Below are positions 13,216 through 40,213 of a DNA stretch of 64,000 nt, piece after piece; positions within the stretch are counted from its first letter, which is position 1; the number at the start of each line of letters is the position of its first letter. A program made the position numbers and the translations under genes. The DNA is from Bradyrhizobium oligotrophicum S58 (GTDB taxonomy: Bacteria > Pseudomonadota > Alphaproteobacteria > Rhizobiales > Xanthobacteraceae), in assembly GCF_000344805.1 (NCBI RefSeq), contig NC_020453.1, forward strand, positions 6,047,001 to 6,111,000, given 5' to 3'. The notes under the pieces were generated by a model. The model was not told the DNA's origin, searched no databases, and saw nothing but the letters and a program-made list of their open reading frames with translations.

Positions 13216-13226
13216 GCGAGGTACGA

Positions 13227-15384: not shown

Positions 15385-15389
15385 GGCGA

Positions 15390-18741: not shown

Positions 18742-18796
18742 GGCCCTGTTTCCTCCCGACGCCCTAGCTAGTCATGAAGTTCGCGTGCGGTCAACG

Positions 18797-18813
18797 TGAA
18801 ACCTCCAGTTTCA
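18797..18813. promoter_or_regulatory. TGAAAC-N5-GTTTCA palindrome, candidate RhaR operator
   Basis: A perfect 6-bp inverted repeat with a five-base spacer lies 55 bases upstream of rhaR and 107 bases upstream of rhaD, in the only gap between the two divergent rha units. Symmetry and position suit a dimeric DeoR-type protein. No binding data; the link to RhaR is inference. Confidence 0.5.
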
Positions 18814-18920
18814 TTCAAGATCAATCACGCTGCACAGCAACATCGATCACACGATGATTGACCATGATCGATTGCGATACTATCGTCCGCGTAATCAGAG
18901 AGATCAGGGAGGAGAGGGTC

Positions 18921-21017: not shown

Positions 21018-21041
21018 AACGCCGATCCTCGGGAGATGAGC

Positions 21042-22337: not shown

Positions 22338-22414
22338 TGGAAGCAGGCCAGAGCTTTGGATGACGTCTCCGAGATCATCGTCGGATCGGATCAAGCAACA
22401 AGAGCAATTTGGTG

Positions 22415-22597
22415 GTCGATCAGGCCGCGACCTATCGGCACACCGCACAAGGGAAAGGCTACGCCCGGCGCACAGCGCCTCGCATCCTCGCGGCAACACG
22501 CAAAATGCGAGGCCACGTTTTGGCCAACACAACGCAACCAGAATTTCCGAACGCCGCGTCCGGCACGTTTCCGAACAGCAAAATCGTGAAAATATAA
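22415..22597 (+). pseudogene. Decayed 3' end of a tyrosine integrase gene (left copy)
   Basis: The last 60 or so codons of an integrase. TAPRILAATRKMRGHVLANT and the C-terminal SKIVKI match the end of the copy at 39760-40113 nearly codon for codon. Upstream of 22450 the frame shifts: the stretch that should read LSAHRTRE-SYAGYAKR is split between frames, and everything further toward the N-terminus is missing. The stop is followed after 17 bases by the tRNA-Gln fragment, the same arrangement as at the right end. It lies immediately after rhaI. Confidence 0.78.
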
Positions 22598-22614
22598 GAT
22601 ACCGGCTTTGCAAG

Positions 22615-22668
22615 AACCTGGCTGGGGCGGGAGGGATCGAACCTCCGAATGGCGGAATCAAAATCCGC
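22615..22668 (-). repeat. attachment-site repeat: 3' part of tRNA-Gln(UUG)
   Basis: These 54 bases match 40135-40188 with a single mismatch (A for T at the position after CCTCCG). They correspond to the tRNA-Gln T arm, variable region, the 3' anticodon stem and the acceptor 3' strand, including the encoded CCA. The match ends within the anticodon stem, so this is not a functional tRNA. It is the classic sequence left at the far end of an element integrated in a tRNA gene. Confidence 0.88.
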
Positions 22669-22874
22669 GTGGTCCGCTAGATAAGTCGACGCGCATTCAA
22701 GGCTTTCCAATAGCGCCACCCAAACAGACTGACCGACACGAGCCATGGGCGAGACGGCCGTAGCGCCTCAAACAGAAGTCCTTTCCACCCGTCGTCCGGC
22801 CCCCGGGTGGATCTGGTGACGCCAGCCGGGCTGATGCGGCTTCGAGCAGATGCCCGCACATCTGCATCCGGTCG

Positions 22875-24200
22875 TCAGAAGTCGGCGACCTTCGTCCCGC
22901 CACGCCGCGCGAAGCGTTCGGGAGCGTAGGGCTTGGCATCGACGATCGGGGTCGCGGCAGTGGCGAGATCGGCGATGAGGTGACCGGCACCCGGGCCGAT
23001 GCCGAAGCCGTGCCCACTGAACCCCGCGGCGACGATCAGGCCGGGCAGCGCGCCCAGCTCGCCGATCACCGGCACGCCGTCCGGCGTGGAATCGATGTAG
23101 CCCGCCCAGGTCGCCGTGACCTGGCTCCGCTTCAACGCCGGCAGCAGCTCGATTGCGCGCGCATGGGTGAGGCGGATGGTCGCCTGATCCGGCTTCGGAT
23201 CGAGGATGCGGGTGCATTCCATGGGCGTCGGCTCATCGAGCCGCCAGCGACCGAGCGTCTCATGGCCGGCGCGCAGGCCTTCCAGGCCGCCGGGCAGCAG
23301 ATTGCGCCAACGCTTGACGAACATCGGCAGGAACTGCGGCGCGAAGCGCAGTTGCTGCAAGGTCGGATCGACACGCCCGCGTCCGCTGATTGCGAGTGTA
23401 TGGCCACCATCGCCGCGCTTGGTGATCGAAACGCCGGCCGTGTGCAGCGCCGGCGGCAGCGGCGCGTTGGACGGCGACAGGGCGAGCGCTGAGGAACGGA
23501 TGGACGCAATGGGAAGCGCGACGCCGATCTGATGGCAGAACGAGGACGCCCAGGCCCCAGCCGACAGCACGGCCAGCGGCGTGCGGATGGTGCCGCGCTC
23601 GGTGACCACCGCCGACAGCCGGCCAGCGCTGGTCTCGACGCCGCGCACGGCGCACATCTGATGCACCGTGCCGCCCTGCTTCATGATCGCGCGCGCCACG
23701 GCCGGCGCGGCATCGGCGGGGCTGGCGGTGCCGTCGGTCGGCGAGAACACGCCGCCCTTCCAGCTGCGTCCAGTGGCAGCGCCGCGCTCGCTGGCCTGCC
23801 GACTGTCCAGCATATGCGTAGTGATGCCGGCCGTCTTGGCGAATTCGCCCCAGCGCGCCCAGCCGGCGAGCTCCGCATCGTCATTGCTCAGATAGAACAA
23901 GCCACAGCGCGAGAAGCCGGTCGCCTCGCCGCTGTCGCTGGTGAAGCGCTCCCACAGATCGAGGCTGAGGGTCGCCATCGGCAGCTCGCGCGCGTCGCGG
24001 TTCTGCTGCCGGCACCAGCCCCAGTTGCGGCTCGACTGCTCGGCCCCGATCCTCCCCTTTTCGATCAGCGCCACCGCAAGCCCGCGCCGCGCCAAGTAGT
24101 AGGCGGCGAACACCCCGACGATGCCGCCGCCGATGACCACGGCATCTGCGTGCCCGGGCAGCGTTGGCGATGTTTCAACGTGCACCAGCGGGACGGGCAT
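22875..24200 (-). CDS. FAD-dependent amino acid/amine oxidoreductase (DadA-like)
   Basis: A 441-residue DAO-family flavoprotein. The Rossmann motif AVVIGGGIVGVFAAYYLARR starts at about residue 20; the FAD-contact stretch GRIGAEQSSRNWGWCRQQ follows; the C-terminal GYIDSTPDGVPVIGELGALP and AAGFSGHGFGIGPG motifs are those of DadA/GlyOx enzymes. It would oxidise an amino acid or secondary amine to the imine. It is divergent from the Lrp-type gene, with 241 bases between, a layout in which the regulator normally controls the oxidase. The natural substrate is unknown; it is presumably what the adjacent ABC transporter brings in. Confidence 0.88.
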   Translation of the reverse strand: MPVPLVHVETSPTLPGHADAVVIGGGIVGVFAAYYLARRGLAVALIEKGRIGAEQSSRNWGWCRQQNRDARELPMATLSLDLWERFTSDSGEATGFSRCGLFYLSNDDAELAGWARWGEFAKTAGITTHMLDSRQASERGAATGRSWKGGVFSPTDGTASPADAAPAVARAIMKQGGTVHQMCAVRGVETSAGRLSAVVTERGTIRTPLAVLSAGAWASSFCHQIGVALPIASIRSSALALSPSNAPLPPALHTAGVSITKRGDGGHTLAISGRGRVDPTLQQLRFAPQFLPMFVKRWRNLLPGGLEGLRAGHETLGRWRLDEPTPMECTRILDPKPDQATIRLTHARAIELLPALKRSQVTATWAGYIDSTPDGVPVIGELGALPGLIVAAGFSGHGFGIGPGAGHLIADLATAATPIVDAKPYAPERFARRGGTKVADF

Positions 24201-24441
24201 GCGGTCTCTCCGACGTTCGGCAGCATCAGGCTAGAACGGTATCGCGCGCGGGAGACGCCGGATTCGGCAGCCAGGCAGCATTTGATGCTACAAGCCACCA
24301 GGCCTTCGGCGTATTGTTTTGCATTGCCTAAATCAGCCTCATGCGGCCTCATTCTTGCTTTGGCGAAGTTCGTTTGGCACAACGGCAGAATTTTCTGCTG
24401 TAATGTGGACCGGACGCGTCGTCACTCGGGACCCCGGCTTC

Positions 24442-24918
24442 ATGAAGCTCGATCGCATCGACATCAAGATCCTGCACGAACTGCAGAAGAACGGCCGCGT
24501 CACGAATGTGGAGCTCGCCGAGCTGGTCAACCTGTCGCCGAGCCCATGTCTGATGCGGGTGAAGAAGCTGCAGGCGGAAGGCTATATCGAGGGCTATTCG
24601 GCGCAAATCTGCGTCTCGAAGCTCGGCCAGACGCTGACCGTGTTCACCGAGGTCACCCTGAAGAACCATCGCCAGATCGACTTCGCCCGCTTCCTCGCCG
24701 CGGTGGAGAAGATCGACCAAGTGATCGAGTGTCACCTCGTCTCCGGCGGCTACGACTACATGATGAAGTTCGTCACCGCCGGGATCGGCGAGTATCAGAC
24801 CATCATGGAGCGGCTGACCGACATGGACATCGGCATCGAGAAATATTTCAGCTTCGTCGTGCTGAAGTCGCCGATCGTCAAGCCCTATCTGCCACTGACC
24901 AGCCTGTTCGAGATGTAG
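24442..24918 (+). CDS. Lrp/AsnC-family transcriptional regulator
   Basis: A 158-residue feast/famine regulator. The N-terminal helix-turn-helix spans about residues 4-55 (MKLDRIDIKILHELQKNGRV, then LVNLSPSPCLMRVKKLQAEG). The C-terminal RAM domain, which binds amino acids, includes VIECHLVSGGYDYMMKF. Start chosen at 24442 as in homologues that begin MKLDxID; an in-frame ATG at 24403 is possible. It sits between the divergent flavin oxidase and the convergent ABC transporter operon and is the only regulator in the 22.6-40.2 kb segment, so it probably senses the substrate or an amino acid product. Confidence 0.93.
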   Translation: MKLDRIDIKILHELQKNGRVTNVELAELVNLSPSPCLMRVKKLQAEGYIEGYSAQICVSKLGQTLTVFTEVTLKNHRQIDFARFLAAVEKIDQVIECHLVSGGYDYMMKFVTAGIGEYQTIMERLTDMDIGIEKYFSFVVLKSPIVKPYLPLTSLFEM

Positions 24919-24935
24919 GCTTCCGCCGGCGCCTG

Positions 24936-26591
24936 TCAGCGCTGACCATAGGCGCGGACCTGCTCGGGATCCTGGCGCAGATTGTCGAGCCATGCCGGAT
25001 CGAGCTTCGGCACCGAAGATAGCAGCAGCTGCGTGTAGGGATGCTCCGGCTTCGCCATGGCCTCGGGCGTGATCTGCTCGATCTTGCGGCCGCGATACAT
25101 CACGACGATGTCGTCGCAGATCGCCTCGACCACCGACAGATCGTGGCTGATGAAGACATAAGCAAGATCGAGCTCGCGCTGCAACTCCTTGAGCAGATCG
25201 ATGACCGCCGCGGCGACGACGCTGTCGAGCGCCGAGGTGATCTCGTCGCACACGATCAGCTTCGGATCGGCGGCCAGCGCGCGCGCGAAGTTGACGCGCT
25301 GCTTTTGACCGCCGGACAGCTCGGCCGGCCGGCGCAGCCGCAAGCTTCGCGGCAGCTTCACCATGTCGAGCAACTGATCGATGCGGGCGCTTCGCGGCTT
25401 GCGCGACATGTCGTGATAGAATGTCAACGGCCGGGCCAGAATGTCTTCGACCGTATGCGCCGGATTGAGCGCCGTGTCGGCATGCTGGAACACGATCTGC
25501 ACTTGGCGCAGCTGGTCCCGGCTGCGATGTCGCGCGCTGAGCCGGAGCTCGCGCCCGTCGAACACGACGCCTCCCGCAAACGGTGGCAGGATGCCGGCGA
25601 TGGCGCGAGCCAGCGTCGATTTTCCGCACCCAGATTCGCCGATGATGCCGAGATTGCGACCGCGCGCCACGCGCAGGCTGACATTCTCGACAGCCACGAT
25701 CGCAGGCCTGCCGTCCGAGCGCGGCGGACCATAGCCGACCGACACCTCGTGAACCTCGAGCAGCGCCTCGGCTGTGGCCGAAGACGCGTCACGGCGCGGC
25801 TCATGATCCGGCGCGACGGCCGCCAGCAGCTGCCGCGTATAGGGATGCTGCGCGCGGTCGAGAATGTCGGCTGTCATGCCGCTCTCCTGCACCTCGCCAT
25901 TCCTGAGCACGACGATGCGGTCGGCGATCTGGGCGACGACGGCGAGATCATGCGACACGTAGATGCCGGCGATGCGGTGTGCCGATATGACCGATTTGAA
26001 AGCCCGGAGCACCTCGACCTGGGTGGTGACGTCGAGCGCCGTGGTCGGCTCGTCGAAGATGAGCACCTTGGGGCTTGCGATCAGCGCCATCGCGGCGGCG
26101 AGCCGCTGCAGCTGGCCGCCAGACACCTGGTGCGGATAGCGATGTCCTATCGTCTCCGGATTGGGGAGTGACAGCGCGCGAAACAGCGCGACAGCCCTGG
26201 TGCGCGCCTCCTCCAACGGCATCACGGCATGTATGCGTACGACCTCGATCACCTGCTCCATGATCCGGATCGCCGGATTGAACGCCGCGGCCGCGCTCTG
26301 CGGCACATAGGCGATCTTGGCGCCGCGCACGGCCGCCTTGTCCTTCTCAGACAGCGCCACCATGTCGACGCCGTCGAACATGACCGAGCCGCCGACGATC
26401 TTGCAGCCGGCCCGCGCATGGCCCATCAGGCTCATCGCGATGGTGGTCTTGCCGGACCCGCTCTCGCCGATCAGCGCGACGATCTCTCCTTCGACGATGT
26501 CGAGGTCGACGCCCCTGATGATCTCGATCGTGCGGCCAGAATCGGTGGTCGCCTCGACGCGAAGATCGCGGATCTGGACCAGGCTCGTCAT
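24936..26591 (-). CDS. Peptide/nickel-type ABC transporter, fused double ATP-binding protein (DppD-DppF-like)
   Basis: A 551-residue protein with two ABC domains joined in one chain. Domain one carries Walker A GESGSGKTT near residue 41, signature VSGGQLQRLAAAM and Walker B LIFDEP; domain two carries GESGCGKST, signature LSGGQKQRVNFARAL and Walker B IVCDE. In Dpp/Opp systems these are usually separate genes. The ATG shares a base with the preceding permease stop (TAATG), so translation is coupled. It energises import of the ligand bound by the product of the gene at 28481-30088. It ends only 17 bases from the convergent Lrp gene. Confidence 0.93.
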   Translation of the reverse strand: MTSLVQIRDLRVEATTDSGRTIEIIRGVDLDIVEGEIVALIGESGSGKTTIAMSLMGHARAGCKIVGGSVMFDGVDMVALSEKDKAAVRGAKIAYVPQSAAAAFNPAIRIMEQVIEVVRIHAVMPLEEARTRAVALFRALSLPNPETIGHRYPHQVSGGQLQRLAAAMALIASPKVLIFDEPTTALDVTTQVEVLRAFKSVISAHRIAGIYVSHDLAVVAQIADRIVVLRNGEVQESGMTADILDRAQHPYTRQLLAAVAPDHEPRRDASSATAEALLEVHEVSVGYGPPRSDGRPAIVAVENVSLRVARGRNLGIIGESGCGKSTLARAIAGILPPFAGGVVFDGRELRLSARHRSRDQLRQVQIVFQHADTALNPAHTVEDILARPLTFYHDMSRKPRSARIDQLLDMVKLPRSLRLRRPAELSGGQKQRVNFARALAADPKLIVCDEITSALDSVVAAAVIDLLKELQRELDLAYVFISHDLSVVEAICDDIVVMYRGRKIEQITPEAMAKPEHPYTQLLLSSVPKLDPAWLDNLRQDPEQVRAYGQR

Positions 26592-27445
26592 TACAACGCC
26601 TCCCGGTCGCGGATCTTTGTCGGCAAATTGTCGATCAACAGATTCACCGCGATCGTCAGGCTCGCGATCGCCAATGATGGAAAGATCACCGCCGGCGCAG
26701 CGTAGGGCAAACCGCCGATGTTCTCACGCACCAGCGCGCCCCAATCAGCATAAGGCGGCCTCACGCCCAGGCCGAGGAACGACATTCCGGAGAGCAGCAG
26801 CACGATGAACACGAAGCGCAAGCCCAGATCGACCAGCACCGGACCGAGGATGTTGGGCAGGATTTCCGCTCGGATCAGATACAACAAGCTCTCACCGCGG
26901 ATGCGCGCCACCACGACGAAATCCATGGTGTTGATATTGACCGCCAGCGCGCGGGCGAAGCGATAGGCGCCAGGAATATAGATCACGGCCATGGTCACGA
27001 TGAGAACGGGAATCGAGGAGCCGACAGCGGCGACGACGACGAGGCTGAACAGCTTGCTCGGGATAGAGCTGAGCGCATCGAGCAGCCGACTCAGCACCAT
27101 GTCGACGATACCGCCCGTGATCGCGGCGATCATGCCGAGCATGACGCCAGAAGCGCCGGCGATGATCACGGACGCCACGGAAATGCCGAGCGTGTAGCGC
27201 GCGCCCATCAGGATGCGCGAGGTCATGTCGCGGCCGAGATAGTCGGAGCCCAGCCACAGCGCGCGGCTCATCGGACCGAAATAGTCGGTGTCGACGATGT
27301 CGCCGATCGGATGCGGGACGATATAGGGCGCGGCCACCGCAACCGCGATCCAGAACATCACGATCAGCGCACCGGTCACGCCAACCGCATTGATGCGGTA
27401 GCCGATCAGAGACTTGCGGCTGGGAGATGTCGTGGCGCTCGTCAT
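26591..27445 (-). CDS. ABC transporter permease (DppC-like)
   Basis: A 284-residue inner-membrane permease. The first membrane segment (VTGALIVMFWIAVAVAAPYI) is followed by the DppC-type extracytoplasmic motif LGSDYLGRDMTSRILMGAR, and the EAA loop region reads RIRGESLLYLIRAEILPNIL. About six membrane segments. It overlaps the DppB-like gene by four bases (27442-27445) and the ATPase gene by one. It forms a heterodimeric channel with the preceding gene product. Confidence 0.92.
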   Translation of the reverse strand: MTSATTSPSRKSLIGYRINAVGVTGALIVMFWIAVAVAAPYIVPHPIGDIVDTDYFGPMSRALWLGSDYLGRDMTSRILMGARYTLGISVASVIIAGASGVMLGMIAAITGGIVDMVLSRLLDALSSIPSKLFSLVVVAAVGSSIPVLIVTMAVIYIPGAYRFARALAVNINTMDFVVVARIRGESLLYLIRAEILPNILGPVLVDLGLRFVFIVLLLSGMSFLGLGVRPPYADWGALVRENIGGLPYAAPAVIFPSLAIASLTIAVNLLIDNLPTKIRDREAL

Positions 27446-28392
27446 CGCAGCCTCGGATTGGACAGGATGGCGATGATGTCGGCCGTAGTGGTCAGCAGCA
27501 GGAAGCCGAAACAGAAGATGATGGCGCAGCTCTGGATCAGCGGCAGGTCGCGGGTCGAGACCGCATCGACCATCAGCTTGGCGACACCGGGATAGTTGAA
27601 GATGGTCTCGACGATGATGACGCCGCCCAGGAGATAGGACAGTGACAGCGCGACCGCGTTGACAATCGGCCCGAGCGCATTAGGCAGCGCGTGACGCAGC
27701 ACGACCCGGCCGCGCGAGGCGCCCTTCAGCAGCGCCATTTCGACGTAAGGCGTGTTCAGCGTTTCGACCACAGCCGCCCGGCTCATCCGGATCATCTGCG
27801 CCGAGATCACGATGGTGAGCGTGACGACCGGCATGGCATAGGCACGGGCGAAATCATAGGCGGTGCGGATCTCGCTGGTGAAGGACACGGCAGGAAGCCA
27901 GTTGAGATAGACCGCGAACAGCAGCACTGCGAGCGTCGCGATCATGAACTCCGGCACCGACACGACGCCAATGATCGCGATGGTGAGACAGCGGTCATAC
28001 AAGGTGTTGCGCAGCATCGCCGCGGTGATGCCGAGCGTCAGCGCCAGCGGCACCGCAATGATCGCGGTGAGGCCGGCGAGCTTGAGGGTGTTGACGAGGC
28101 GCCCGGCGATCAGCTTCGCCACCGGCATGTTGTTGGCATAGGAGAGTCCGAGATCGCCATGCGCTACGCCGGCGAGCCAGCGCAGGAAGCGAAAGATCGC
28201 GGGATCGTCGAGGTGCATCGCCTTGCGCAGGCCCTCGACCGCCTCCGGCGTCGCCGCCTGCCCAAGCAGGATCGTGGCAGTATCGCCGGGCAGCATGGCG
28301 GTGGCGAAGAAGACGGCGAATGAAACAATGATCGCGGTGACCAGCGCGATGGCCAGCCGGGACAGGACGAGTGATGCGATCCGATGTTTCAA
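27442..28392 (-). CDS. ABC transporter permease (DppB-like)
   Basis: A 316-residue permease with the DppB layout: an N-terminal helix (LAIALVTAIIVSFAVFFATA), the motif MLPGDTATILLGQAATPEAV, LGLSYANNMPVAKLIAGRL and the C-terminal LLGGVIIVETIFNYPGVAKL region with an EAA-type loop (LLKGASRGRVVLRHALPNAL). Begins 88 bases after the binding-protein gene and is followed without a gap by the second permease. The four genes form a complete importer. Confidence 0.92.
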   Translation of the reverse strand: MKHRIASLVLSRLAIALVTAIIVSFAVFFATAMLPGDTATILLGQAATPEAVEGLRKAMHLDDPAIFRFLRWLAGVAHGDLGLSYANNMPVAKLIAGRLVNTLKLAGLTAIIAVPLALTLGITAAMLRNTLYDRCLTIAIIGVVSVPEFMIATLAVLLFAVYLNWLPAVSFTSEIRTAYDFARAYAMPVVTLTIVISAQMIRMSRAAVVETLNTPYVEMALLKGASRGRVVLRHALPNALGPIVNAVALSLSYLLGGVIIVETIFNYPGVAKLMVDAVSTRDLPLIQSCAIIFCFGFLLLTTTADIIAILSNPRLR

Positions 28393-28480
28393 ACTGTGCG
28401 CCCGCGAGCCTGATCAGAGGATGATGGTCGTAGCCGCAGCGCCGGTCTCACTGACAGGCGCTACCCGCCTCCGACGGCAT

Positions 28481-30088
28481 TCACGAATCGAGCCAGACAT
28501 ATTCAGCGAAGGCATAACCCATCATGCCGCCGAGCGGGCTCGGCTCCAAGCCTTTCAGCTTGGACGAGGTGGCATCGATGTTGGAGATGTAGGCCGGAAC
28601 GATGGTGCCCGCCTCCTCCGCGATCATCACCTGCATCTCGGCATACATCTGCTTACGCTTGGCCTGGTCGAGCAGGCCGCGCGCCTCAAGCATCATCTTG
28701 TCGAACTTCTCGGACTTGTAGCGGCTCTCGTTCCAGGGCGCCTCGGAGGCGTAGAGCAGCGAGAACAGGATGTCCGGCGTCGGGCGCGGATTGATGTTGC
28801 CGAAATGGACCGGTGCCTTCAGCCAGTAATTGTCCCAATAGCCGTCCGACGGAACGCGCTGCACGTCCAGCGTCAGGCCGATCGCGGCCGCCGAGGCCTG
28901 GATCACCATGGCCATCTCGATCGCGGAATTAGCGGCCTCGGAGGTCACCACCGGAATCGAGGTGCCGAGCACACCGGCCTTCTGGAACAGCGACTTCGCC
29001 TTGTCCGGATCGAACGGCTTCGGCTTGAGGTCGGAGTTGTGGAAAAAGTTCGCCGGGGACACCGGCTGGTCGTTGCCGACGACGCCGAAGCCGCGCAGCA
29101 CCGATTTGACGATCTGCTCGCGGTTCACCAGGTGCTTCATGCCGTCGATGAAGTCCTTCTTGTTGCCCGGCGCCATGTCGAGGCGGATGTTGAGGTCGGT
29201 GTAGTTCCCGGTCGTCGACTTCGACAGCGCGATCCCCTCCTTCCCCTCGATCAGCCGGAGCGAGCGCGGATTGATACTGGCCGCCAGCTGGATGTCGCCG
29301 GACAGCAGCGCGTTGACGCGCGCATTCTCCTCGGTGATCGCGATGAACTCGATCTGGTCTAGGTAAGGGCCATCCTTGAAATAGTTCTTGTTGCGCATCC
29401 CGATCGAGCGGACGCCGGGCTCGAACGCTTCGCGGACGAAGGCGCCGGTGCCGTTGCCCTGGGAGAAATCGGTGGTGCCGTCGGCGACGATCATGAAGTG
29501 ATGCAGCGCGAGGATCATCGGCAGGTCGGCGTTCGGGCTCGCCAGGGTGATCTCGACGGTGGTCTTGTCGACTGCCTTGAAGCCGGTCATCTGCGCCGCG
29601 ATCTTGGCGACCTTGGAGCCGGTGGCCTTGTCCAGATGTCGCTTCAGCGAGAACACGACGTCATCGGCTGTCAGCGGCTTGCCGTCGTGGAAGGTGACGC
29701 CTTTCTTTAGCTTCACGGTCCAGGTCTGCGCGTCCTGGGACTCGATCGACTCCGCAAGTTCCATCTGCGCCGCGCCGCTCTTGTCCAGCGTCGTCAGCCG
29801 ATTGTAGAACGAGCAGCACCGCACGTAATCGGTCGAGAACGACGCCTTGGCCGGATCGAGCGTATCGGCCGTCGAGGTCGACCAGCCCGCGGCCTTGATC
29901 GCGCCGCCCTTCTTCGGGGAGGCCGCGAATGCGCGCTCGGCGCGACCGAGGATGGTGCTGCCGGCAGCGAGCGCGGCGCCATTGGCAACCATCATCTTCA
30001 GGAGATCCCGGCGTGACGCGCCGCGCCGGATCGCCGCCTCGACCCGCCCATCATCATCAGCCGTCCAGTTGGTGATCTCGTGGCTCAT
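28481..30088 (-). CDS. ABC transporter substrate-binding protein, family 5, Tat-exported
   Basis: A 535-residue periplasmic binding protein (SBP_bac_5) of a peptide/opine/nickel-type importer. The N-terminus has a twin-arginine motif, SRRDLLKMM, then a hydrophobic stretch ending in AFAASPKK, so it is likely exported folded through Tat. The SBP_bac_5 core includes TVKLKKGVTFHDGKPLTADD and VFSLKRHLDKATG. The binding specificity cannot be read from sequence. Together with the oxidases, aminotransferase and Lrp regulator nearby, an amino compound or small peptide is likely. It leads the transporter operon and has about 50 bases to the HAD gene upstream. Confidence 0.93.
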   Translation of the reverse strand: MSHEITNWTADDDGRVEAAIRRGASRRDLLKMMVANGAALAAGSTILGRAERAFAASPKKGGAIKAAGWSTSTADTLDPAKASFSTDYVRCCSFYNRLTTLDKSGAAQMELAESIESQDAQTWTVKLKKGVTFHDGKPLTADDVVFSLKRHLDKATGSKVAKIAAQMTGFKAVDKTTVEITLASPNADLPMILALHHFMIVADGTTDFSQGNGTGAFVREAFEPGVRSIGMRNKNYFKDGPYLDQIEFIAITEENARVNALLSGDIQLAASINPRSLRLIEGKEGIALSKSTTGNYTDLNIRLDMAPGNKKDFIDGMKHLVNREQIVKSVLRGFGVVGNDQPVSPANFFHNSDLKPKPFDPDKAKSLFQKAGVLGTSIPVVTSEAANSAIEMAMVIQASAAAIGLTLDVQRVPSDGYWDNYWLKAPVHFGNINPRPTPDILFSLLYASEAPWNESRYKSEKFDKMMLEARGLLDQAKRKQMYAEMQVMIAEEAGTIVPAYISNIDATSSKLKGLEPSPLGGMMGYAFAEYVWLDS

Positions 30089-30139
30089 GTCATCCGTCCC
30101 CTGTTCGCGATCCGGCAGAATGAAGTCGTCAGTGGCTCG

Positions 30140-30859: not shown

Positions 30860-31014
30860 TCTTTGAGGCCTTCCTCGTCGTCGATCCTAGTGTGAAGCCG
30901 GGTTCCGGCGAAAACGTCCGAATTACCGGGACCCGACGGCAGAAAATTGCGAATAGGAGCAGGTGTCGACATATCGGCGTTGCTGCACACGCAGCGATCT
31001 GCTCCTGCCCGCTT

Positions 31015-32391: not shown

Positions 32392-32404
32392 GATGATCTC
32401 CGGT

Positions 32405-33256: not shown

Positions 33257-33416
33257 TCCGGTTTCAGCAGGAGTCTGGGCGAGCCGCGCCCGGCAGATCG
33301 TCTGAAGGTCATGACGCCGGCGATATCTTCAGCCGCCGAACCGGGGCAAAGCCGCATCTTATGCTGGCCTACCGGCCTATCATCTGAGGCCGAGACCACG
33401 ACCGGCATGAGGACCC

Positions 33417-34085
33417 ATGAGCCGCTTTCGTTCGAAATACGTGACCTTCGACTGCTACGGCACGCTGACCAATTTCGAGATGGCGGAAGCCGCGCGCGAT
33501 CTCTACAGCGCGACGCTCTCCGAGCCGGCGATGACGGAGTTCGTGAAGGTCTTCTCCGCCTACCGCCTCGACGAGGTCCTCGGCGCGTGGAAGCCCTATG
33601 CCGAGGTCGTCAGCAACGCACTGGCGCGCAGCTGCCGCAGGATCGGCATCGCCTTCAAGCCCGAAGATGCCGAGATGGTGTATCAGCGCGTGCCGACCTG
33701 GGGTCCGCATCCCGATGTGCCGGCGGGCCTCGCCAAGGTGGCGAAGGAGATTCCGCTGGTCATTCTCTCCAACGCCATGAACGTGCAGATCCCCTCGAAC
33801 GTCGCCAAGCTCGGCGCGCCGTTCCATGCCGTGTTCACCGCCGAGCAGGCGCAGTCCTACAAGCCGCGGATGCGCGGCTTCGAATACATGTTCGACATGC
33901 TCGGCTGCGGCCCGGAGGACATCACGCACTGCTCCTCGTCGTTCCGCTACGATCTGATGACGGCGCACGACCTCGGCATCAAGAGCAAGGTCTGGGTCAA
34001 TCGCGGCCATGAGCCGGCGAATCCGTATTACGGCTACACCGAGATCAAGGATATCTCCGGGCTGCCCGGCGTGTTCGGTCTCTGA
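33417..34085 (+). CDS. HAD-superfamily hydrolase, haloacid dehalogenase type II-like
   Basis: A 222-residue HAD enzyme with TFDCYGTLTNFE (nucleophile aspartate near residue 11), motif II ILSNAMN, a lysine in QSYKPRMRGFEYM and motif III CSSSFRYDLMTAHDLG. In characterised L-2-haloacid dehalogenases the last motif is SSNAWD; the asparagine is absent here, so dehalogenation is doubtful. It is the second HAD gene of the segment and only distantly similar to the one at 30140-30859. It is followed after 14 bases by the PuuB-like oxidase, so the two are co-transcribed. Confidence 0.87.
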   Translation: MSRFRSKYVTFDCYGTLTNFEMAEAARDLYSATLSEPAMTEFVKVFSAYRLDEVLGAWKPYAEVVSNALARSCRRIGIAFKPEDAEMVYQRVPTWGPHPDVPAGLAKVAKEIPLVILSNAMNVQIPSNVAKLGAPFHAVFTAEQAQSYKPRMRGFEYMFDMLGCGPEDITHCSSSFRYDLMTAHDLGIKSKVWVNRGHEPANPYYGYTEIKDISGLPGVFGL

Positions 34086-34099
34086 GCAGAGTGCCCGCG

Positions 34100-35374
34100 A
34101 TGAAGTATGTCTCCTACTGGCGCGACACCGCGACCGCCTTTGCCGGCGGTCACACCGGGCCCGTGGAGGGGCACTACGACGTCGCGGTGATCGGCGGCGG
34201 CTTCACGGGACTCGGCGCCGCGCTGCAGCTCGCCAAGGCCGGCGCCAAGGTGATCGTGCTCGAAGCGGATCAGGTCGGCTCCGGCGCGTCGGGGCGCAAT
34301 GGCGGGCACCTCAATAACGGGCTCGCCCACAGCTATCCGGCCGCCAAGGCCGAGCTCGGCACTGCGCGCGCGATCGCGCTCTACAAGGCGTTCGACGACT
34401 CGATCGACACGCTGGAGCGGCTGATCGCCGAGGAGAGCATCGCCTGCGATTTCCGCCGCTCAGGCAAGCTCAAGCTGGCTTCCAAGCCAGCCCACTTCGA
34501 TTCGATCGCGAAGAACTTCGAAGCGATTCATCGCGAGGTCGACCCGGAGACAGCCCTGCTCTCGCCGGCCGAGCTGAGGTCCGAGATCGGCTCACCCTTC
34601 CATGGCGGCATGCTGTTCAAGAAGAGCGGGATGATGCACATGGGCCGCTTCGCCGCCGGGCTTGCCACGGCCGCGAGCCGCCACGGCGCCGTCATCGTCG
34701 AGCAGGCCGCGGTGACCGAGCGGGTGCAGGACGCCAAGGGCTTCCGCCTCACCACCGCCAAGGGCACGGTGAGCGCCGAGCAGGTGCTGCTCGCCACCGG
34801 CGCCTACACACCGTCGAGCTTCAGCTACTTCCGCCGCCGCATCATTGCCGTCGGCAGCTTCATCATCGCGACGCGGCCGCTGACGGAGGCCGAGGCGGCG
34901 TCGGTGCTGCCGGGCCATCGCACCTATGTCAATTCGATGAACATCGGCAACTACTTCCGCCTGTCGCCGGACAACCGCCTGATCTTCGGCGGCCGCGCAC
35001 GCTTCTCGGCGACATCGGATCAGCAGTCCGACGCCAGGAGCGGCGCGATCCTGCGCGCCGCGATGGAGCAGATGTTCCCGCAGCTATCAGGCATCGCCAT
35101 CGACTATTGCTGGGGCGGCCTGGTCGACATGACCGCCGACCGCTATCCGCGCGCCGGGCGCCAGGACGGGCTGTGGTACGCGATAGGCTATTCGGGCCAC
35201 GGCGCGCAGCTCTCGACCCATCTCGGCATGATCATGGCCGATGCGATGCTCGGCCGGCCGGACCGGAATCCGATGAAGGACGCCGGCTGGCCGGTCGTGC
35301 CCGGCCATTACGGCAAGCCGTGGTTCCTGCCGTTCGTCGGCGCCTACTACAAGACCATGGACTGGATCCGCTGA
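34100..35374 (+). CDS. FAD-dependent oxidoreductase, PuuB/OrdL-like
   Basis: A 424-residue DAO-family flavoprotein close in layout to gamma-glutamylputrescine oxidase. The Rossmann motif VAVIGGGFTGLGAALQLAK is at about residue 28, followed by the group signature GSGASGRNGGHLNNG; MGRFAAGLA and the C-terminal WGGLVDMTADRYPRAGRQDG and YSGHGAQLSTHLG complete the fold. ATG at 34100; a GTG three codons upstream is possible. It would oxidise an amine to an aldehyde plus ammonia, with hydrogen peroxide. Acts alongside the DadA-like enzyme at 22875 but is not a close copy. Confidence 0.9.
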   Translation: MKYVSYWRDTATAFAGGHTGPVEGHYDVAVIGGGFTGLGAALQLAKAGAKVIVLEADQVGSGASGRNGGHLNNGLAHSYPAAKAELGTARAIALYKAFDDSIDTLERLIAEESIACDFRRSGKLKLASKPAHFDSIAKNFEAIHREVDPETALLSPAELRSEIGSPFHGGMLFKKSGMMHMGRFAAGLATAASRHGAVIVEQAAVTERVQDAKGFRLTTAKGTVSAEQVLLATGAYTPSSFSYFRRRIIAVGSFIIATRPLTEAEAASVLPGHRTYVNSMNIGNYFRLSPDNRLIFGGRARFSATSDQQSDARSGAILRAAMEQMFPQLSGIAIDYCWGGLVDMTADRYPRAGRQDGLWYAIGYSGHGAQLSTHLGMIMADAMLGRPDRNPMKDAGWPVVPGHYGKPWFLPFVGAYYKTMDWIR

Positions 35375-35392
35375 GCCGTGACGCGCCGGCGA

Positions 35393-36325
35393 TCAGTAGC
35401 CCCGGCTGCGGTCGACGAGGCCGACAGGATCGAGCCCGGCGCGATGCCGCTTGATGTTGTCGGCCACCGCCAGCGCCGCCGAGTCCGGCTGCGTGACGCT
35501 GGCGACATGCGGCGTGATCAGCACGCGCGGATGCCGCCACAACGCGTGGCCGGCCGGCAGCGGCTCCGGATCAGTGACATCGAGCACGGCCCCCGAGAGA
35601 TGCCCGCTGTCGAGCGCCGCGAGCAGCGCCGCCTGGTCGAGCTGCGCGCCTCGGCCGGTCTGCACCAGCGCGGCGCCCTGCGGCAGCCTGGCGAGCAGCT
35701 CGGCATTCAGCAGCCCGCGCGTCTCGTCCGTCAGAGGCAGCAGGCAGACCAGGATGTCGGTGGCCGCCAGCATTCGATCGAGACCGTCGGCACCATGATG
35801 CGTCGTCACGCCGGCGATATCGCGCGGGCTGCGGCTCCAGCCGGACAACGGAAAGCCGAACGGCTTCAGCCGCTCCAGCACCGCCTGCCCGAGCAGGCCG
35901 AGGCCGAGCACGCCGATGCGCCGCGCGTGCGCCTGCGGCTGCGCGACCGCGCGCCACAGCTGCTGCCGCTGCTGATCGAGATAGACCGGCCAGTTCCGAT
36001 GCAGCGCCAGCACCGCCAGCGCGACATATTCCTGCATCATCCTGATGATGCCGTCCTCCACCATGCGGACGATCTTGACCTCTGCGGGGACAGAGGCCGC
36101 ATTGAACTGATCGATGCCGGCGCCGATCGAGAACAGGATCTCCAGATTGCGGTAGAGGCTCAGATTCGGCGGCACCAGCCAGGTGATCATGTAGCTGACG
36201 GCAGCGGGATCGACCCTGGCGGGATCGATCTCGAACGGCAGGTCCGGCAGCTCGCGCGCCAGCACCTCGCGAAAGATCGCGCCGCGCCTTGCATCCGAGT
36301 TGAAAAGAAAGGTCATGACGGTCAT
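35393..36325 (-). CDS. D-2-hydroxyacid dehydrogenase (glyoxylate/hydroxypyruvate reductase type)
   Basis: A 310-residue NAD(P)-dependent dehydrogenase of the GhrA type. The dinucleotide loop [17 protein letters not shown] is at about residue 138, the catalytic arginine lies in [10 protein letters not shown], the glutamate in [11 protein letters not shown] and the histidine in [10 protein letters not shown]. It would reduce a 2-oxoacid such as glyoxylate to the 2-hydroxyacid. It is convergent with the oxidase gene (18 bases apart). An ATG three codons into the frame is an alternative start. In the segment it could reduce the 2-oxoacid released by the aminotransferase; that is inference. Confidence 0.9.
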
Positions 36326-36518
36326 CCCAGGCGGAGGGGCCGATCGTCATGTCCGAGCCTCGTCCCGCAGCCGTCATGCTAATCGCGCCGGGAACGTATT
36401 CCATGCCGAATGCGGATGAGGATTGAGTGGAATGTTGCGCGGATCTGTCCGAAAAATAGGCATGAGGACGTCCGGCGCCGCCTTGCGGCCGCTTGCGGCA
36501 ACCGACAGGAAGACGAGC

Positions 36519-37415
36519 ATGGATGATCCTAGCGTCGAATCGCGCGCCGTCGACGTGTTCGAGATGCGCCTCGCCGACATCGGCACGGTCGATGTCGCGC
36601 AGCTCGTGGCGCTGTCGGTGTCGGTGCGCTGGCCGCATAGGGCCGAGGACTGGCGGCTGATGCTCAGCCTGGGCCGCGGCGTCGTGGCTCTCGACGAGAT
36701 CGGCCGCATCTGCGGATCGGCGATGTGGTTTCCCTACGCCGACAGCTTCGCAGCCGTCGGCATGGTCATCACCTCGCCCCGCCTGCAGGCGCTCGGCACC
36801 GGCCATTGGCTGATGACGCGCGTGATCGCGGCCTGCGGCGAGCGCAGCCTGCGCCTGAACGCGACTCACGCCGCCTACCGGCTGTACCGGTCACTCGACT
36901 TCAAGCGGGAGAAGACGCTGTACCAATGTCAGGGACGCGCCAACGGCGCCGCCGCGGCCGCGGTCGACCGCAGCGACGTCCGGCAACTGAGCGAGCGCGA
37001 TCTATCCCTGCTCATCGAAGCCGATGCGCACGCCTATGGCGCGGCGAGGGCCGAGCTGATCACGGCCTTGTTCCGGCAATCGACCGGCACCGGCCTGCTG
37101 CGATCCGGGCGGCTCGCCGCCTTCGCGCTGTGCCGGCGGTTCGGACGCGGCCACGTCATCGGACCGGTGGTGGCCGCATCCGATGCAGATGCGATCGCAG
37201 TGGTCGCCCCCCACGTCGCCGCCCATGCGCGCCAGTTCCTGCGGATCGACACCCACAGCGAAGGCGACGCCTTCCGCGCCTTCATCGCCAGCGCCGGCCT
37301 CGCCCTGTACGACACGGTCACGACGATGTCCCTGCGCCGCGGCGTCAACGACCCCGGCCCGCGCGCCGCCGACACGCCCATGAGCTACGCCGTGGTCAGC
37401 CAGGCCTTCGGCTAG
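36519..37415 (+). CDS. GNAT-family N-acetyltransferase, paralogue of the gene at 32405-33256
   Basis: A 298-residue two-domain GNAT protein. It shares with the other copy the stretch WPHRAEDWRLML (WPHRREDWQMAL there), RFGRGHVIGPVVA and the terminal SQAFG, so the two descend from one gene. The acetyl-CoA loop is weaker here (SPRLQALGTGHWLM), so acetyl-CoA binding may be altered. ATG at 36519 with AGGAAG seven bases upstream; the frame is open earlier but without a ribosome site. It is divergent from the dehydrogenase gene. Function unknown. Confidence 0.85.
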   Translation: MDDPSVESRAVDVFEMRLADIGTVDVAQLVALSVSVRWPHRAEDWRLMLSLGRGVVALDEIGRICGSAMWFPYADSFAAVGMVITSPRLQALGTGHWLMTRVIAACGERSLRLNATHAAYRLYRSLDFKREKTLYQCQGRANGAAAAAVDRSDVRQLSERDLSLLIEADAHAYGAARAELITALFRQSTGTGLLRSGRLAAFALCRRFGRGHVIGPVVAASDADAIAVVAPHVAAHARQFLRIDTHSEGDAFRAFIASAGLALYDTVTTMSLRRGVNDPGPRAADTPMSYAVVSQAFG

Positions 37416-37949
37416 CAGACGCCGGTGCCGCGCCGCGGACCTGCGCACGGCCCCGCTGCCCTCGCAGGCCCTTTGGCCGCGCGCACCCCGGCGCACGTGA
37501 TGCGCCTCCCGACCGTTGATGAGAAGCCAATTACAGCTTCGCCGCTCTCCGCTCTACCCGCGAAGCGGTGATCGCAATTCCGCCACTTCTCCTTGCCGAC
37601 ACCGTCGCTGAGGTCGGCAATTGCTCCGGCCGGGACGGCGACAAGTTCGAGCGCTTCGGACTACCCCCCTCCGTGCGGCCCTGGTCCGCGCCCCCTTGAT
37701 CAAGGAATGTTTCTGCAATCTTGAATGTCGCGTGACAGATACCAGCATGGTCCTGCGGTACAATCTCTTCGTTCTCGAGGTCGCGCGCGCGTGGATCGAT
37801 CCCGCCCAGAAACAACCCAATACGCTTCACCACCATGGATACGGCTCCTTCACCGTCGATGGTGCTACGCTCAAGCTGAAGTCGAAGAAGAGATAAACGC
37901 GACCCACGACGGCGATTGACTGACGCGCCTCTGCTGCGGAAGCAACATT
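37416..37949. other. Intergenic, one doubtful small open frame
   Basis: About 530 bases. A 101-codon minus-strand frame, 37531-37836, has AAGGAG eight bases before its ATG, but its product matches nothing I know and an overlapping plus-strand frame at 37621-37896 is equally open. I do not call either a gene. The base composition falls toward the right, ahead of the AT-richer end of the island. Confidence 0.4.
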
Positions 37950-38141
37950 TCAGCGATACCAGCAGTGACCGTGCCGGCAGACGCGACGGTGGGGATATAT
38001 CCAATGCGGACCCCAGCAGGAGCGATACCAATGATAGCCAGTCTCGCCCACACGATAGCAGCCCGCCCTAGCGCTTGTTGGTGCCATGGCGCCTAACACC
38101 ACGATCCCCGCGATGGCGACAAACAACGCTACTTTCTGCAT
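37950..38141 (-). CDS. Small secreted protein rich in Cys, His, Tyr and Trp
   Basis: A 63-residue protein. A clear signal peptide (KVALFVAIAGIVVLGAM, cleavage near ARAG) is followed by about 37 residues with three cysteines and many aromatic and histidine residues (CWGPHWIYPHRRVCRHGHCW). The ATG at 38141 has GAGGAG seven bases upstream. Rhizobial genomes carry many such short exported proteins without known role. The Cys/His content could bind metal; this is inference. Confidence 0.7.
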   Translation of the reverse strand: MQKVALFVAIAGIVVLGAMAPTSARAGCYRVGETGYHWYRSCWGPHWIYPHRRVCRHGHCWYR

Positions 38142-38363
38142 TGTATTCTCCTCGAACAGCCTGAAAGCCACATATTTGTGTCAATCGACCGTGTCGTGCA
38201 CGTTGACGTAGATCAACGCACAGGAAAGCTTTGTCGGTCGTAATTGGCAAGATCACTATCCGGTCGCGCAGCGCCGCCGAGTGAAGAGGTGACCTATTTC
38301 AGCCGAATGGGACTTGGCCGTAGGACGTAGGCCAGAGGACCACGGCACGCACAAGGCGCGCGG

Positions 38364-39449
38364 ATGCTGAGACCGAAATATCTCGTTCCAGAAGAGAGAC
38401 AGCTCTTGCTTCGCTTCTGGCAAAGCGCATCTGGATATTGGCGCGGGCCATCAGCCTGGGGGGCATGGCTCCTGGTCATTGGACTGATCGCTAATGTCGT
38501 TCTGCAGCTTCTAACACAATATGCACTGAATTTTTGGAATCGAGATTTCTTCGACGCGGTCGGTCGGAAGGATCAAGCGGAGCTCGTGTCTCAGTCGATC
38601 CGGTTCGTGCCGCTCGCGGCGGCGAGCATCGCACTGACTGCGTCCTCAGTATGGGGGCGCATGACCTTGCAACGATCATGGCGCGCGTGGCTCAGTAACC
38701 AACTTTATGACTTCTGGCTCCAGAATGACCGCCACACCATACTCGGCCTCGTTGCCGGCGACCACGATGCACCCGAGTATCGCATCGCGGAAGACGGCAA
38801 GATTGCAACCGATCTGCCCGTCGATCTCGTGATTGGCCTCCTTCAATCGCTGCTCACGATCGCGACATTCATTGGAGTGCTCTGGTCGGTCGGGGATAGC
38901 CTTACGATCGATATCGGCGAATCCGTCCTGACGATTCCCGGCCACCTCGTCCTTGCGGTTATTTCGTATTCAGCGCTGCTCGCGGCCGGCATTTGGCTGA
39001 CTGCCGGTAAACTGACCCGGGTTATCGAGGAAAACAAGCGCGTGGAAGCTGAGCTGCGAGCAATCGGAACTCATGTGCGGGAGACCGGCAAGGCGAAGAA
39101 TTCGCTCGGCGCTACAACGGATGGACGGCATGCCGTGGGCGCAGCGTTGAAGGCGGTGATTGGCGTCTGGCGCATCTATTGCTGGCAACTGATGCGAATG
39201 ACGCTGGTTACTTACTCCGGCCTCCTCGTCACTCCCGTGATCGGCCTTCTGCTATGTCTCCCAAAATATCTCGCCGACACCATGACGCTCGGCGAAGTGC
39301 TCCAGGCGTCGACTGCGTTCGTTGTCGTACAATCTGCGTTCAACTGGTTCACAGACAACTACGCCAAATTGGCCGAATGGGCTGCTTCCGCCAATCGGGT
39401 TGCTTCGCTCCTGCTTGCATTGGACCAAATTGGCCCGCCTCGCCAATGA
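38364..39449 (+). CDS. SbmA/BacA/YddA-type transporter membrane domain, ATPase domain missing
   Basis: A 361-residue membrane protein of the ABC_membrane_2 / SbmA-BacA-like family. It has several membrane segments (WLLVIGLIANVVLQLLTQYA at the start, then HLVLAVISYSALLAAGIWLT) and the family features LNFWNRDFFDAV, SNQLYDFWLQND and FNWFTDNYAKLAEWAASANR, the last of which is normally followed by the ATPase in YddA-like proteins. Here the frame ends 14 codons later and no Walker motif follows. It may be a natural half-size protein, as BacA/SbmA are, or an ABC gene cut by the island end. The region is AT-richer than its neighbours. Confidence 0.78.
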   Translation: MLRPKYLVPEERQLLLRFWQSASGYWRGPSAWGAWLLVIGLIANVVLQLLTQYALNFWNRDFFDAVGRKDQAELVSQSIRFVPLAAASIALTASSVWGRMTLQRSWRAWLSNQLYDFWLQNDRHTILGLVAGDHDAPEYRIAEDGKIATDLPVDLVIGLLQSLLTIATFIGVLWSVGDSLTIDIGESVLTIPGHLVLAVISYSALLAAGIWLTAGKLTRVIEENKRVEAELRAIGTHVRETGKAKNSLGATTDGRHAVGAALKAVIGVWRIYCWQLMRMTLVTYSGLLVTPVIGLLLCLPKYLADTMTLGEVLQASTAFVVVQSAFNWFTDNYAKLAEWAASANRVASLLLALDQIGPPRQ

Positions 39450-39759
39450 GCGATGATGATGAGACGAGATCTTGGCGGATTTAATTGTCGTCGATCGGGT
39501 GGGCTTAGGGCCGGCCGACGCGCTCGAGTTGGCGCACGCCCGCCTCCTGGTCGGCCAAGCTCTGCTGCTGCGCGACGGCTGCAGTCGCAAGACTCCGATC
39601 TTCCCGGACTGCTCGATCGGCACAATCCGGATCTGGTCGAGCTTCTCGGCAATCTGGACCATGGATGGGATGCGCGATTGGCGATCGAGAAATCCGATCC
39701 GCAAAAGGATGGTCGTCGGGATGCTACCCACATCCCGCACGCGTTTACGCATGATAAAC

Positions 39760-40113
39760 GATATGTCCGTCCCGGCGCCAAGACTGTCAGCAAGCCCTAC
39801 TCGTTCTCCGGCATGCAGAAGATCGTTCAACGGATGCCGAAGGAAATTGGTCTGCCCGTCACGTTCACACTCGACGCCTGCCGGCATGGCGGGATGACCG
39901 ACTTGAGGAAGCCGAACTTACCGAGGGACAGGGCCGCGCCCTGTCGGCACACCGCACGAGGGAAAGCTACGCCGGCTATGCCAAGCGCCCAGCTCCGCGC
40001 ATTCTTGCGGCCACACGCAAACGACGAGCTCACGTCTTGGCGAACACAATGCAAACAGAGCTTCAGAATGCGGCGTCTGGCGAGTTTCAGAACAACAAAA
40101 TCGTGAAAATGTA
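39760..40113 (+). pseudogene. Decayed 3' end of a tyrosine integrase gene (right copy)
   Basis: The C-terminal part of a tyrosine recombinase in two frames. The first reads KPYSFSGMQKIVQRMPKEIG and FTLDACRHGGMTDL, which holds the conserved HxxR-type region; after a one-base loss near 39904 the second frame reads LSAHRTRESYAGYAKR, with the likely catalytic tyrosine, then the basic tail ending NKIVKM. The N-terminal two thirds are absent, since the DNA before about 39760 encodes no recognisable integrase. It ends 25 bases from the tRNA-Gln gene, the usual place for an integrase in a tRNA-targeted element. Confidence 0.85.
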
Positions 40114-40134
40114 AGATCCTGAAAGCACGTCAGA

Positions 40135-40188
40135 AACCTGGCTGGGGCGGGAGGGATCGAACCTCCGTATGGCGGAATCAAAATCCGC
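40135..40188 (-). repeat. attachment-site repeat within tRNA-Gln, right copy
   Basis: The 54-base direct repeat of 22615-22668 with one mismatch. It covers the 3' part of the intact tRNA-Gln gene and four bases beyond. The two copies are in the same orientation, 17.5 kb apart, as expected for attL and attR of an integrated element. Confidence 0.88.
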
Positions 40189-40213
40189 TGCCTTACCGCT
40201 TGGCTACGCCCCA
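40139..40213 (-). tRNA. tRNA-Gln (anticodon UUG)
   Basis: A 75-base gene. The acceptor stem TGGGGCG pairs with CGCCCCA, followed by G and an encoded CCA. The anticodon stem GCGGA/TCCGC encloses the loop TTTTGAT, giving anticodon TTG (UUG). The T arm has the normal GGTTCGATCC core, with the T-loop TTCGATC. It appears complete and functional, and serves as the integration target of the element to its left. Confidence 0.97.

What the first reader, a model, noticed from the sequence alone, without database searches (positions are those of the whole stretch)
22415..40213. tRNA-Gln-targeted island bounded by tRNA 3'-end repeats, with integrase remnants at both ends
A 54-base direct repeat of the tRNA-Gln(UUG) 3' part (22615-22668 and 40135-40188, one mismatch) flanks 17.5 kb. 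Each copy is preceded by the decayed 3' end of the same tyrosine integrase (22415-22597 and 39760-40113). One integrase remnant next to the full tRNA is the usual island layout. The second remnant, lying outside the left repeat, implies a tandem insertion: another element once integrated in the same tRNA and its far end may lie further left, perhaps beyond rhaI. The cargo is a complete uptake and catabolism set, now probably fixed because both integrases are dead.
Basis: partly seen in the sequence, partly recalled or inferred. Interest (0 to 1): 0.72.

Follow-up and report, generated by a model that had tools for sequence, protein, structure and literature searches.

The report
Two decayed islands stacked at tRNA-Gln
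In this soil Bradyrhizobium two related mobile DNA elements appear to have landed one after the other in the same tRNA gene and then lost their integrases; relatives use the same spot for other inserts, so this is a clear but ordinary example of a known way bacterial genomes grow.

Summary
A 54-bp copy of the 3' part of tRNA-Gln(UUG) lies at 22615-22668 and in the intact tRNA (40139-40213, minus strand), 53 of 54 identical; a 25-base core occurs twice in the 8.26-Mb genome (by length B. oligotrophicum S58). Each copy follows a dead C-terminal piece of one tyrosine-recombinase family. The pieces are 78% identical, and the right one is 92% identical to a piece in BTAi1, so they come from two related elements: tandem insertion is supported. 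Seven clade strains share a tRNA-side anchor and a left anchor (ending at window 7.5-7.9 kb); between them lie 22-176 kb. S58 shares almost nothing there, but 6 of 21 strain pairs share 9-16 kb, so the left part is partly old flank lost piecemeal. New DNA in S58 thus spans about 9.4-40.1 kb; that an outer element reaches beyond rhaI is compatible, not proved. No third repeat and no empty site was found. The catabolic cargo (22.87-37.41 kb) is not proper to this island: in sister strains it sits at another site, which is empty in S58. Verdict: tandem accretion of decayed, CIME-like elements at a hotspot; a new member of a known kind.

The parts
40139..40213 (-). intact tRNA-Gln(UUG), target gene; the right repeat is 40135-40188
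   Evidence: ARAGORN; alignment
22615..22668 (-). partial tRNA-Gln copy (3' part): left repeat, inner attachment site between the two elements
39705..40114 (+). right integrase remnant: C-terminal part of a tyrosine recombinase pointing at the tRNA, frame changed at 39902-39920
   Evidence: 118 of 121 family proteins hit it by tblastn; left limit; 92% (305 of 331) to the BTAi1 inner remnant
22421..22597 (+). left integrase remnant of the same family, shorter, with an 8-base gap relative to the right one
   Evidence: 116 of 121 family proteins hit it; 78% to the right remnant
22669..40134 (.). inner element, 17.5 kb between the repeats, CIME-like: two repeats, no working integrase
22873..37413 (.). 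catabolic cargo cluster: two DAO-type oxidases, SBP_bac_5-type ABC transporter, aminotransferase, HAD hydrolases, GNATs, 2-hydroxyacid dehydrogenase; at other addresses in sister strains
38364..39449 (+). SbmA/BacA-like ABC membrane protein ORF in the low-GC stretch beside the right remnant
   Evidence: Pfam, composition
9423..22614 (.). outer element or its remains: S58-specific DNA left of the left repeat
   Evidence: no match of 500 bp or more in six other clade strains end to end nor in the fetched stretches of A19 and G256
11797..22351 (.). rhamnose block: kinase, ABC transporter, DeoR regulator, rhaD-type aldolase/dehydrogenase, isomerase; the same block elsewhere in G091, G051, G078
9084..9422 (.). 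probable scrap of old flank, 77% to SRS-191 about 11.5 kb inside its block
1..7869 (.). left anchor: conserved flank with TonB receptor (3054-5375 -) and PepSY-TM protein (6302-7432 -)
40503..42281 (+). right anchor: acyl-CoA dehydrogenase
   Evidence: match in 144 of 146 genus genomes

Best explanation
The tRNA-Gln(UUG) gene is an attachment site. An integrative element of this tyrosine-recombinase family inserted in its 3' end and decayed; what is left of it lies left of 22.6 kb and ends in the left integrase remnant. A second, related element then inserted in the restored tRNA 3' end, which left the inner repeat (22615-22668) between the two. Its own integrase decayed too, leaving a 17.5-kb CIME-like segment. 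Shown: the repeats, two distinct remnants in the same orientation and spacing, intact relatives of the integrase at the same tRNA in other genomes, inner tRNA copies in ORS278 and BTAi1, strongly variable content between conserved anchors. Inferred: the order of events, that the rhamnose block came with the outer element, and that nothing moves now. The left side was also reshaped by loss of old flank. The catabolic cargo is a passenger whose address differs within the clade; how it moved is unknown.
For: Repeats and their uniqueness. Two remnants of one family, 78% identical, while the right one is 92% identical to a remnant beside an inner tRNA copy in BTAi1. The intact protein lies beside tRNA-Gln in G027 (pointing at it), G103 and G038, with remnants in G014, G126 and G120, and its predicted fold matches lambda Int, Tn1549 Int and XerA. 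Anchor to anchor: S58 32 kb, SSBR45G 24, SRS-191 48, B. aeschynomenes 28, ORS285 22, ORS278 132, BTAi1 176; inner tRNA copies in S58, ORS278 and BTAi1. In 16 of 16 genomes for which one search printed extra copies on the tRNA's own contig and strand, all these copies lie on the tRNA's 3' side, within 103 kb. Two or more copies in 54 of 146 genus genomes (hand count).
Against: No third repeat. No empty site seen. The content between the anchors is not wholly strain-specific: 6 of 21 strain pairs share 9-16 kb, so part of the variation is loss of old flank, and the left edge in S58 may be a deletion edge. Most tRNA-Gln surroundings lack this integrase: intact in 3 and remnant in 3 of the 49 other genomes whose tRNA-Gln loci were held (my count of loci; some only 1.5 kb each side). 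Four of the seven clade strains have no inner copy. Partial copies also lie far away or on the other strand in several genomes. The cargo sits elsewhere in sister strains.
Confidence: 0.83

Rival explanations
1. One insertion only: the left remnant with the left repeat is a later duplication or gene conversion of the right end, so there was no second element.
For: Both ends have the same order, integrase C-terminus then tRNA 3' part, at nearly the same spacing; no far repeat of an outer element exists.
Against: The remnants differ at 22% of bases while the right one is 92% identical to a BTAi1 remnant; if those two are orthologous, left and right parted before S58 and BTAi1 did.
Confidence: 0.07
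2. The site itself is an old attachment site with integrase debris, but the rhamnose block and the cargo arrived by another route (block exchange or relocation), not with these integrases.
For: Both blocks occur elsewhere in relatives. The cargo's divergence from sister strains (86-89%) matches flanking DNA (87-90%). Old flank was lost piecemeal in the clade (inferred).
Against: It leaves open why both blocks fill the stretches next to the inner repeat (rhamnose block to 22351, cargo from 22873). It is compatible with accretion at the site and differs only on the cargo.
Confidence: 0.3
3. A single large ICE of the tRNA-Gln symICE type shrank by internal deletion to these pieces.
For: A tRNA-Gln symICE of about 0.68 Mb is reported in Bradyrhizobium (PMC9174649, passages).
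Against: Two distinct integrase ends and an inner repeat need at least two insertions; no conjugation family was among the Pfam hits of the ORFs scanned, though not every ORF was scanned.
Confidence: 0.05

Closest known systems
CIME / tandem accretion of integrative elements (review PMC5704250, passages seen)
   Same: att repeats kept, integrase lost, a second element integrated next to the first at the restored end of the target gene
   Different: the outermost repeat is missing here; both remnants are of one integrase family; excision or cis-mobilisation was not shown
Tandem ssrA genomic islands of Dehalococcoides (PMC3146451, passages seen)
   Same: several islands downstream of one RNA gene, bounded by its partial repeats, some without integration genes
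   Different: tmRNA instead of tRNA-Gln, a 20-bp repeat, other cargo; here only two elements, both with dead integrases
Bradyrhizobium symICE of the tRNA-Gln type (PMC9174649, passages seen)
   Same: genus and target tRNA
   Different: about 0.68 Mb with symbiosis genes; whether it uses this integrase family or this tRNA-Gln gene was not tested
Photosynthesis gene cluster of B. cosmicum bounded by a tRNA and its partial copy (PMC7656271, passages seen)
   Same: partial tRNA duplication bounding a metabolic block in the same genus
   Different: the passages seen do not say which tRNA; integrase remnants were not described in them

Membership tests
tRNA-targeted genomic island | direct repeats made of the tRNA 3' part at both ends | tested here: met
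tRNA-targeted genomic island | integrase gene next to the attachment site | tested here: met
   present as remnants at both repeats; intact relatives beside tRNA-Gln in G027, G038, G103
tRNA-targeted genomic island | site differently occupied in relatives | tested here: met
   some strain pairs share 9-16 kb, S58 shares no piece of 500 bp or more with six strains
tRNA-targeted genomic island | empty site in a relative | tested here: not met
   none among the six other clade strains compared end to end
CIME | retains attL and attR but lacks integration genes | tested here: met
   repeats 53 of 54; only the right remnant found as family match in the genome; activity of the sites not testable here
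CIME | lacks transfer genes | tested here: inconclusive
   none among Pfam hits of scanned ORFs; not all ORFs scanned
CIME | can be mobilised in cis by a neighbour | not testable with these tools
   needs an excision or conjugation assay
tandem accretion | inner att copy between two elements, each with its own integrase end | tested here: met
tandem accretion | outermost att copy at the far end | tested here: not met
   no third copy
symICE / ICE | type IV secretion, relaxase and symbiosis genes | tested here: inconclusive
   none among Pfam hits of scanned ORFs
tyrosine recombinase | fold and C-terminal catalytic region | tested here: met
   Foldseek best hit 1z1g E 4.8e-8, 25 hits at E <= 0.001, on a moderate model; invariant DACRHGG, H and Y in 46 members; catalytic roles recalled, not assayed

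The most novel reading that the evidence does not exclude
The catabolic cluster is an old clade passenger that changes chromosomal address while diverging at the normal rate: at tRNA-Gln in S58, between two genes of another locus in B. aeschynomenes and (without its last 2 kb) SRS-191, a site empty in S58, and with yet other flanks in SSBR45G. Homology to S58 starts at the same stop codon (22873-22875) in all four other strains, with no shared terminal sequence noticed. tRNA-Gln arrays would then act as docking sites for old clade genes rather than as gates for foreign ones.
Probability: 0.35. Interest if true: 0.45.

Novelty: new member of a known kind. Interest (0 to 1): 0.3.

Why it matters
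It shows one tRNA gene as a long-lived docking site in Bradyrhizobium, with 22 to 176 kb between the same anchors in close relatives, and gives integrase fossils that help to order insertions. It also warns that genes between att repeats need not have been delivered by that integrase. The integrase family is hardly seen by Pfam and not by PHROGs or NCBIfam in the members tested, so scans by family may miss such islands.

Tried and rejected
A third repeat: none. An empty tRNA-Gln site: none seen. I first read the tRNA mismatch (T at 40164, where the left copy and nearly all places printed have A) as a mark of an element-borne tRNA end; the BTAi1 inner copy also has A, so a point change in S58 is as likely, and I dropped it. 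I first wrote that the content between the anchors differs in every strain; one search shows 6 of 21 pairs sharing 9-16 kb, mostly in the left part, and I mended this and lowered confidence from 0.86 to 0.83 (single-insertion rival from 0.06 to 0.07, rival on the cargo's route from 0.25 to 0.30). I first gave 80% and 91% for the remnants; these spans held part of the repeat, and without it the figures are 78% and 92%. The ketoacyl-synthase fragment at 8094-8415 as old left flank: within 3-11 kb of tRNA-Gln in G054, G087, G118 and G085 but far from it in others, so undecided. A left flank shared by the whole genus: shared only within subgroups of the genomes compared. A19: no tRNA-Gln within 162 kb; G256: none on the fetched 58 kb up to the contig end; STM3809 (G187 by my reading): contig of 8 kb. 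These three are left out of the seven-strain comparison. ORFs beside the tRNA in the other clade strains were printed but not identified.

For one search I used only the extra copies printed on the same contig and strand as the tRNA. Dropped: copies on other contigs or the other strand, some of them megabases away (G004, G007, G010, G022, G037, G038, G039, G042, G047, G051, G060, G073, G074, G083, G084, G091, G099, G109, G112, G114, G125, G128, G138, and single or paired copies of G070, G116, G123, G133). The list was cut off, so places of some genomes with two or more copies (for example G017, G019, G054, G087, G103) were not seen.
Full report
What was checked. The 54-bp repeat of the tRNA-Gln 3' part is real (22615-22668 and 40135-40188, one mismatch). 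Only the right copy is a tRNA. The genome, 8,264,165 bp in one piece, shows these two copies and no other at up to 3 mismatches of a 25-base or a 45-base pattern. By length it is Bradyrhizobium oligotrophicum S58 (Table 1 of PMC11035471, passage seen); this rests on the length only. BTAi1, ORS278, ORS285 and A19 were named the same way (chromosome lengths against that table; for BTAi1 the table's total less its plasmid). B. aeschynomenes 83002, SRS-191 and SSBR45G are named by the record titles.

The integrase pieces. Left of each repeat lies the C-terminal end of a protein whose intact form, about 410-430 aa, stands beside tRNA-Gln in G027 and, at 94-95%, in G038 and G103, with remnants in G014, G126 and G120. 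That makes 3 intact and 3 remnant cases among the 49 other genomes whose tRNA-Gln surroundings were held then (my count of the loci), many with only 1.5 kb on each side; in the rest this family was not found. A search gave 1781 relatives among 7996 scored candidates; of the 120 listed, none has a precomputed Pfam domain and the only name given is 'hypothetical protein'. Pfam finds nothing in the G027 protein at E 0.1 and a weak Phage_integrase match in 3 of 46 aligned members (best 0.0033); PHROGs finds nothing in it at 0.001 and NCBIfam nothing in two members at 1. The AlphaFold model is moderate (pLDDT 73, pTM 0.53), yet its best PDB matches are lambda integrase, Tn1549 integrase and XerA, and more weakly Cre. 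So 'tyrosine integrase' is right. In S58 the right remnant covers roughly the last quarter to third with one change of frame, the left one the last 46-58 residues. A genome-wide search with the G027 protein found only the right remnant; it missed the short left one, so it would find an intact gene but not every scrap.

Two elements, not one. Without the repeat, the two S58 remnants are identical at 146 of 186 aligned bases (78%). A third remnant, beside an inner 47-base tRNA-Gln copy in BTAi1, is identical to the right S58 remnant at 305 of 331 (92%) and to the left at 151 of 186 (81%). In the alignment BTAi1 and S58 differ in their small gaps. If the BTAi1 and right S58 pieces are orthologous, the left and right remnants parted before S58 and BTAi1 did, which speaks against a recent copy of one end onto the other.

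The region in relatives. An acyl-CoA dehydrogenase gene, the right neighbour here, matches in 144 of 146 genus genomes, and 144 of 146 match the tRNA-Gln query; where I compared positions by eye they are neighbours, usually within 0.6 kb (3.4 kb in G131); this was not computed. On the other side, S58, SSBR45G, SRS-191, 83002, ORS285, ORS278 and BTAi1 share a flank that begins at window 7460-7869 and runs left. Between the anchors they hold 32, 24, 48, 28, 22, 132 and 176 kb. S58 shares no piece of 500 bp or more with the other six (at most 850 bp in all, with BTAi1). The others are not all different: ORS285-ORS278, ORS285-SRS-191, ORS278-BTAi1, ORS278-SRS-191, ORS278-SSBR45G and SRS-191-83002 share 9-16 kb, 6 of 21 pairs. 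ORS278 holds several of these pieces in a row within 34 kb of the left anchor, the others one or two each. I read this as an old flank (or older inserts) lost piecemeal. A 339-bp match at 9084-9422 to SRS-191, at the junction of two such pieces, is probably a scrap of it in S58. So new DNA in S58 begins at about 9.4 kb, and that edge may be a deletion edge rather than the end of an element; this would also explain the missing third repeat. ORS278 and BTAi1 each have an inner tRNA copy, about 57 and 77 kb from the left anchor, and share 86 bp around its end at 92%; the other four strains have none.

In the genus, 54 of 146 genomes have two or more copies of the 45-base pattern, 15 have three or more, 7 none (hand count); some may be second tRNA genes. 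In the 16 genomes with printed extra copies on the tRNA's contig and strand, all lie on its 3' side within 103 kb, up to three in a row (G052 at 21, 32 and 41 kb). Copies on other contigs, the other strand or far away exist as well and were not used.

What the inserts carry. Outer segment: a rhamnose block (11797-22351). Its 3.5-kb end matches in 16 of 146 genus genomes, S58 included; in the six others where it and tRNA-Gln lie on one large contig (G009, G017, G047, G061, G078, G129) they are more than 600 kb apart. The whole block is present at about 80-84% in G091, G051 (in two pieces) and G078, with no tRNA in those 20-kb stretches. Inner segment: a catabolic cluster at 22873-37413, then low-GC debris with an SbmA/BacA-like ORF.

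The cargo's address. The cluster's binding protein is 96% identical in four clade strains (best 80 of 148 loci; records near the window's genome may be left out there). In 83002 and SRS-191 it stands at one locus whose two sides are joined in S58 with 52-73 bp between (S58 3247865 and 3247918); in 83002 a further 3.5 kb with a tRNA-Gly is there too, and the SRS-191 copy lacks window 35379-37413. In SSBR45G the flanks match neither. DNA identity of the cargo between S58 and sisters (86-89%) is that of the flanking DNA at that locus (87-90%), so it is probably old in the clade and not a recent import. I saw no shared terminal sequence by eye. How it moves is not known.

Literature. A tRNA-Gln symICE of about 0.68 Mb is named in PMC9174649 (passages); PMC9239051 describes tRNA-associated symICEs in the genus (passages; it does not contain the term tRNA-Gln). 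Tandem accretion with decayed CIMEs is described in PMC5704250 and for Dehalococcoides ssrA islands in PMC3146451 (passages). Photosynthesis clusters bounded by a tRNA and its partial copy are reported in B. cosmicum (PMC7656271, passages). PMC3899966 was seen in passages, none of which treats this locus. I saw no paper on this S58 locus in five searches, which does not show that none exists.

Verdict. Tandem insertion is supported and the site is a docking site used by many genus members. The reach of the outer element, the cargo's link to this integrase and its present immobility remain unproven. The thing is a good example of a known kind.

Noticed in passing
L052:16700-18004 (G027), P0002 and relatives: Tyrosine recombinase family with at least 1781 relatives; PHROGs and NCBIfam gave no match and Pfam a weak one in 3 of 46 members tested; listed names are only 'hypothetical protein'.
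   Followed up: partly
BTAi1 G160:C1 about 2583000-2760000; ORS278 G186:C1 about 2313000-2447000: Very large tRNA-Gln arrays (176 and 132 kb) with one inner tRNA copy each; contents not annotated.
   Followed up: partly
tRNA-Gln blocks of ORS278, ORS285, SRS-191, SSBR45G, 83002, BTAi1: Pieces of 9-16 kb shared by 6 of 21 strain pairs near the left anchor, in a row in ORS278, suggest an old flank or old inserts lost piecemeal.
   Followed up: partly
G065:C10 76154-76683 and G000:C1 3232348-3232882: A tRNA-Gly(CCC) stretch lies on opposite sides of the same 14.8-kb block in B. aeschynomenes and S58, next to the cargo in the former; possible rearrangement at a second tRNA.
   Followed up: no
window 40164: S58's functional tRNA-Gln differs by one base from nearly all copies printed, by my reading in the variable loop; G109 has the same base.
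   Followed up: partly
window 38364-39449: SbmA/BacA-like ABC membrane ORF of 361 aa beside the right remnant; similar 1-kb pieces lie elsewhere in many genus genomes.
   Followed up: no
window -31000 to 7432 (L040, L041 and window): Left anchor: TonB receptor and PepSY-TM genes, then regularly repeated 1-3 kb segments further left, perhaps modular synthetase genes of a siderophore cluster (a guess, not tested).
   Followed up: no
window 8094-8415: Fragment of a ketoacyl synthase, 79-92% identical to DNA in many genus genomes, in four of them near tRNA-Gln.
   Followed up: partly
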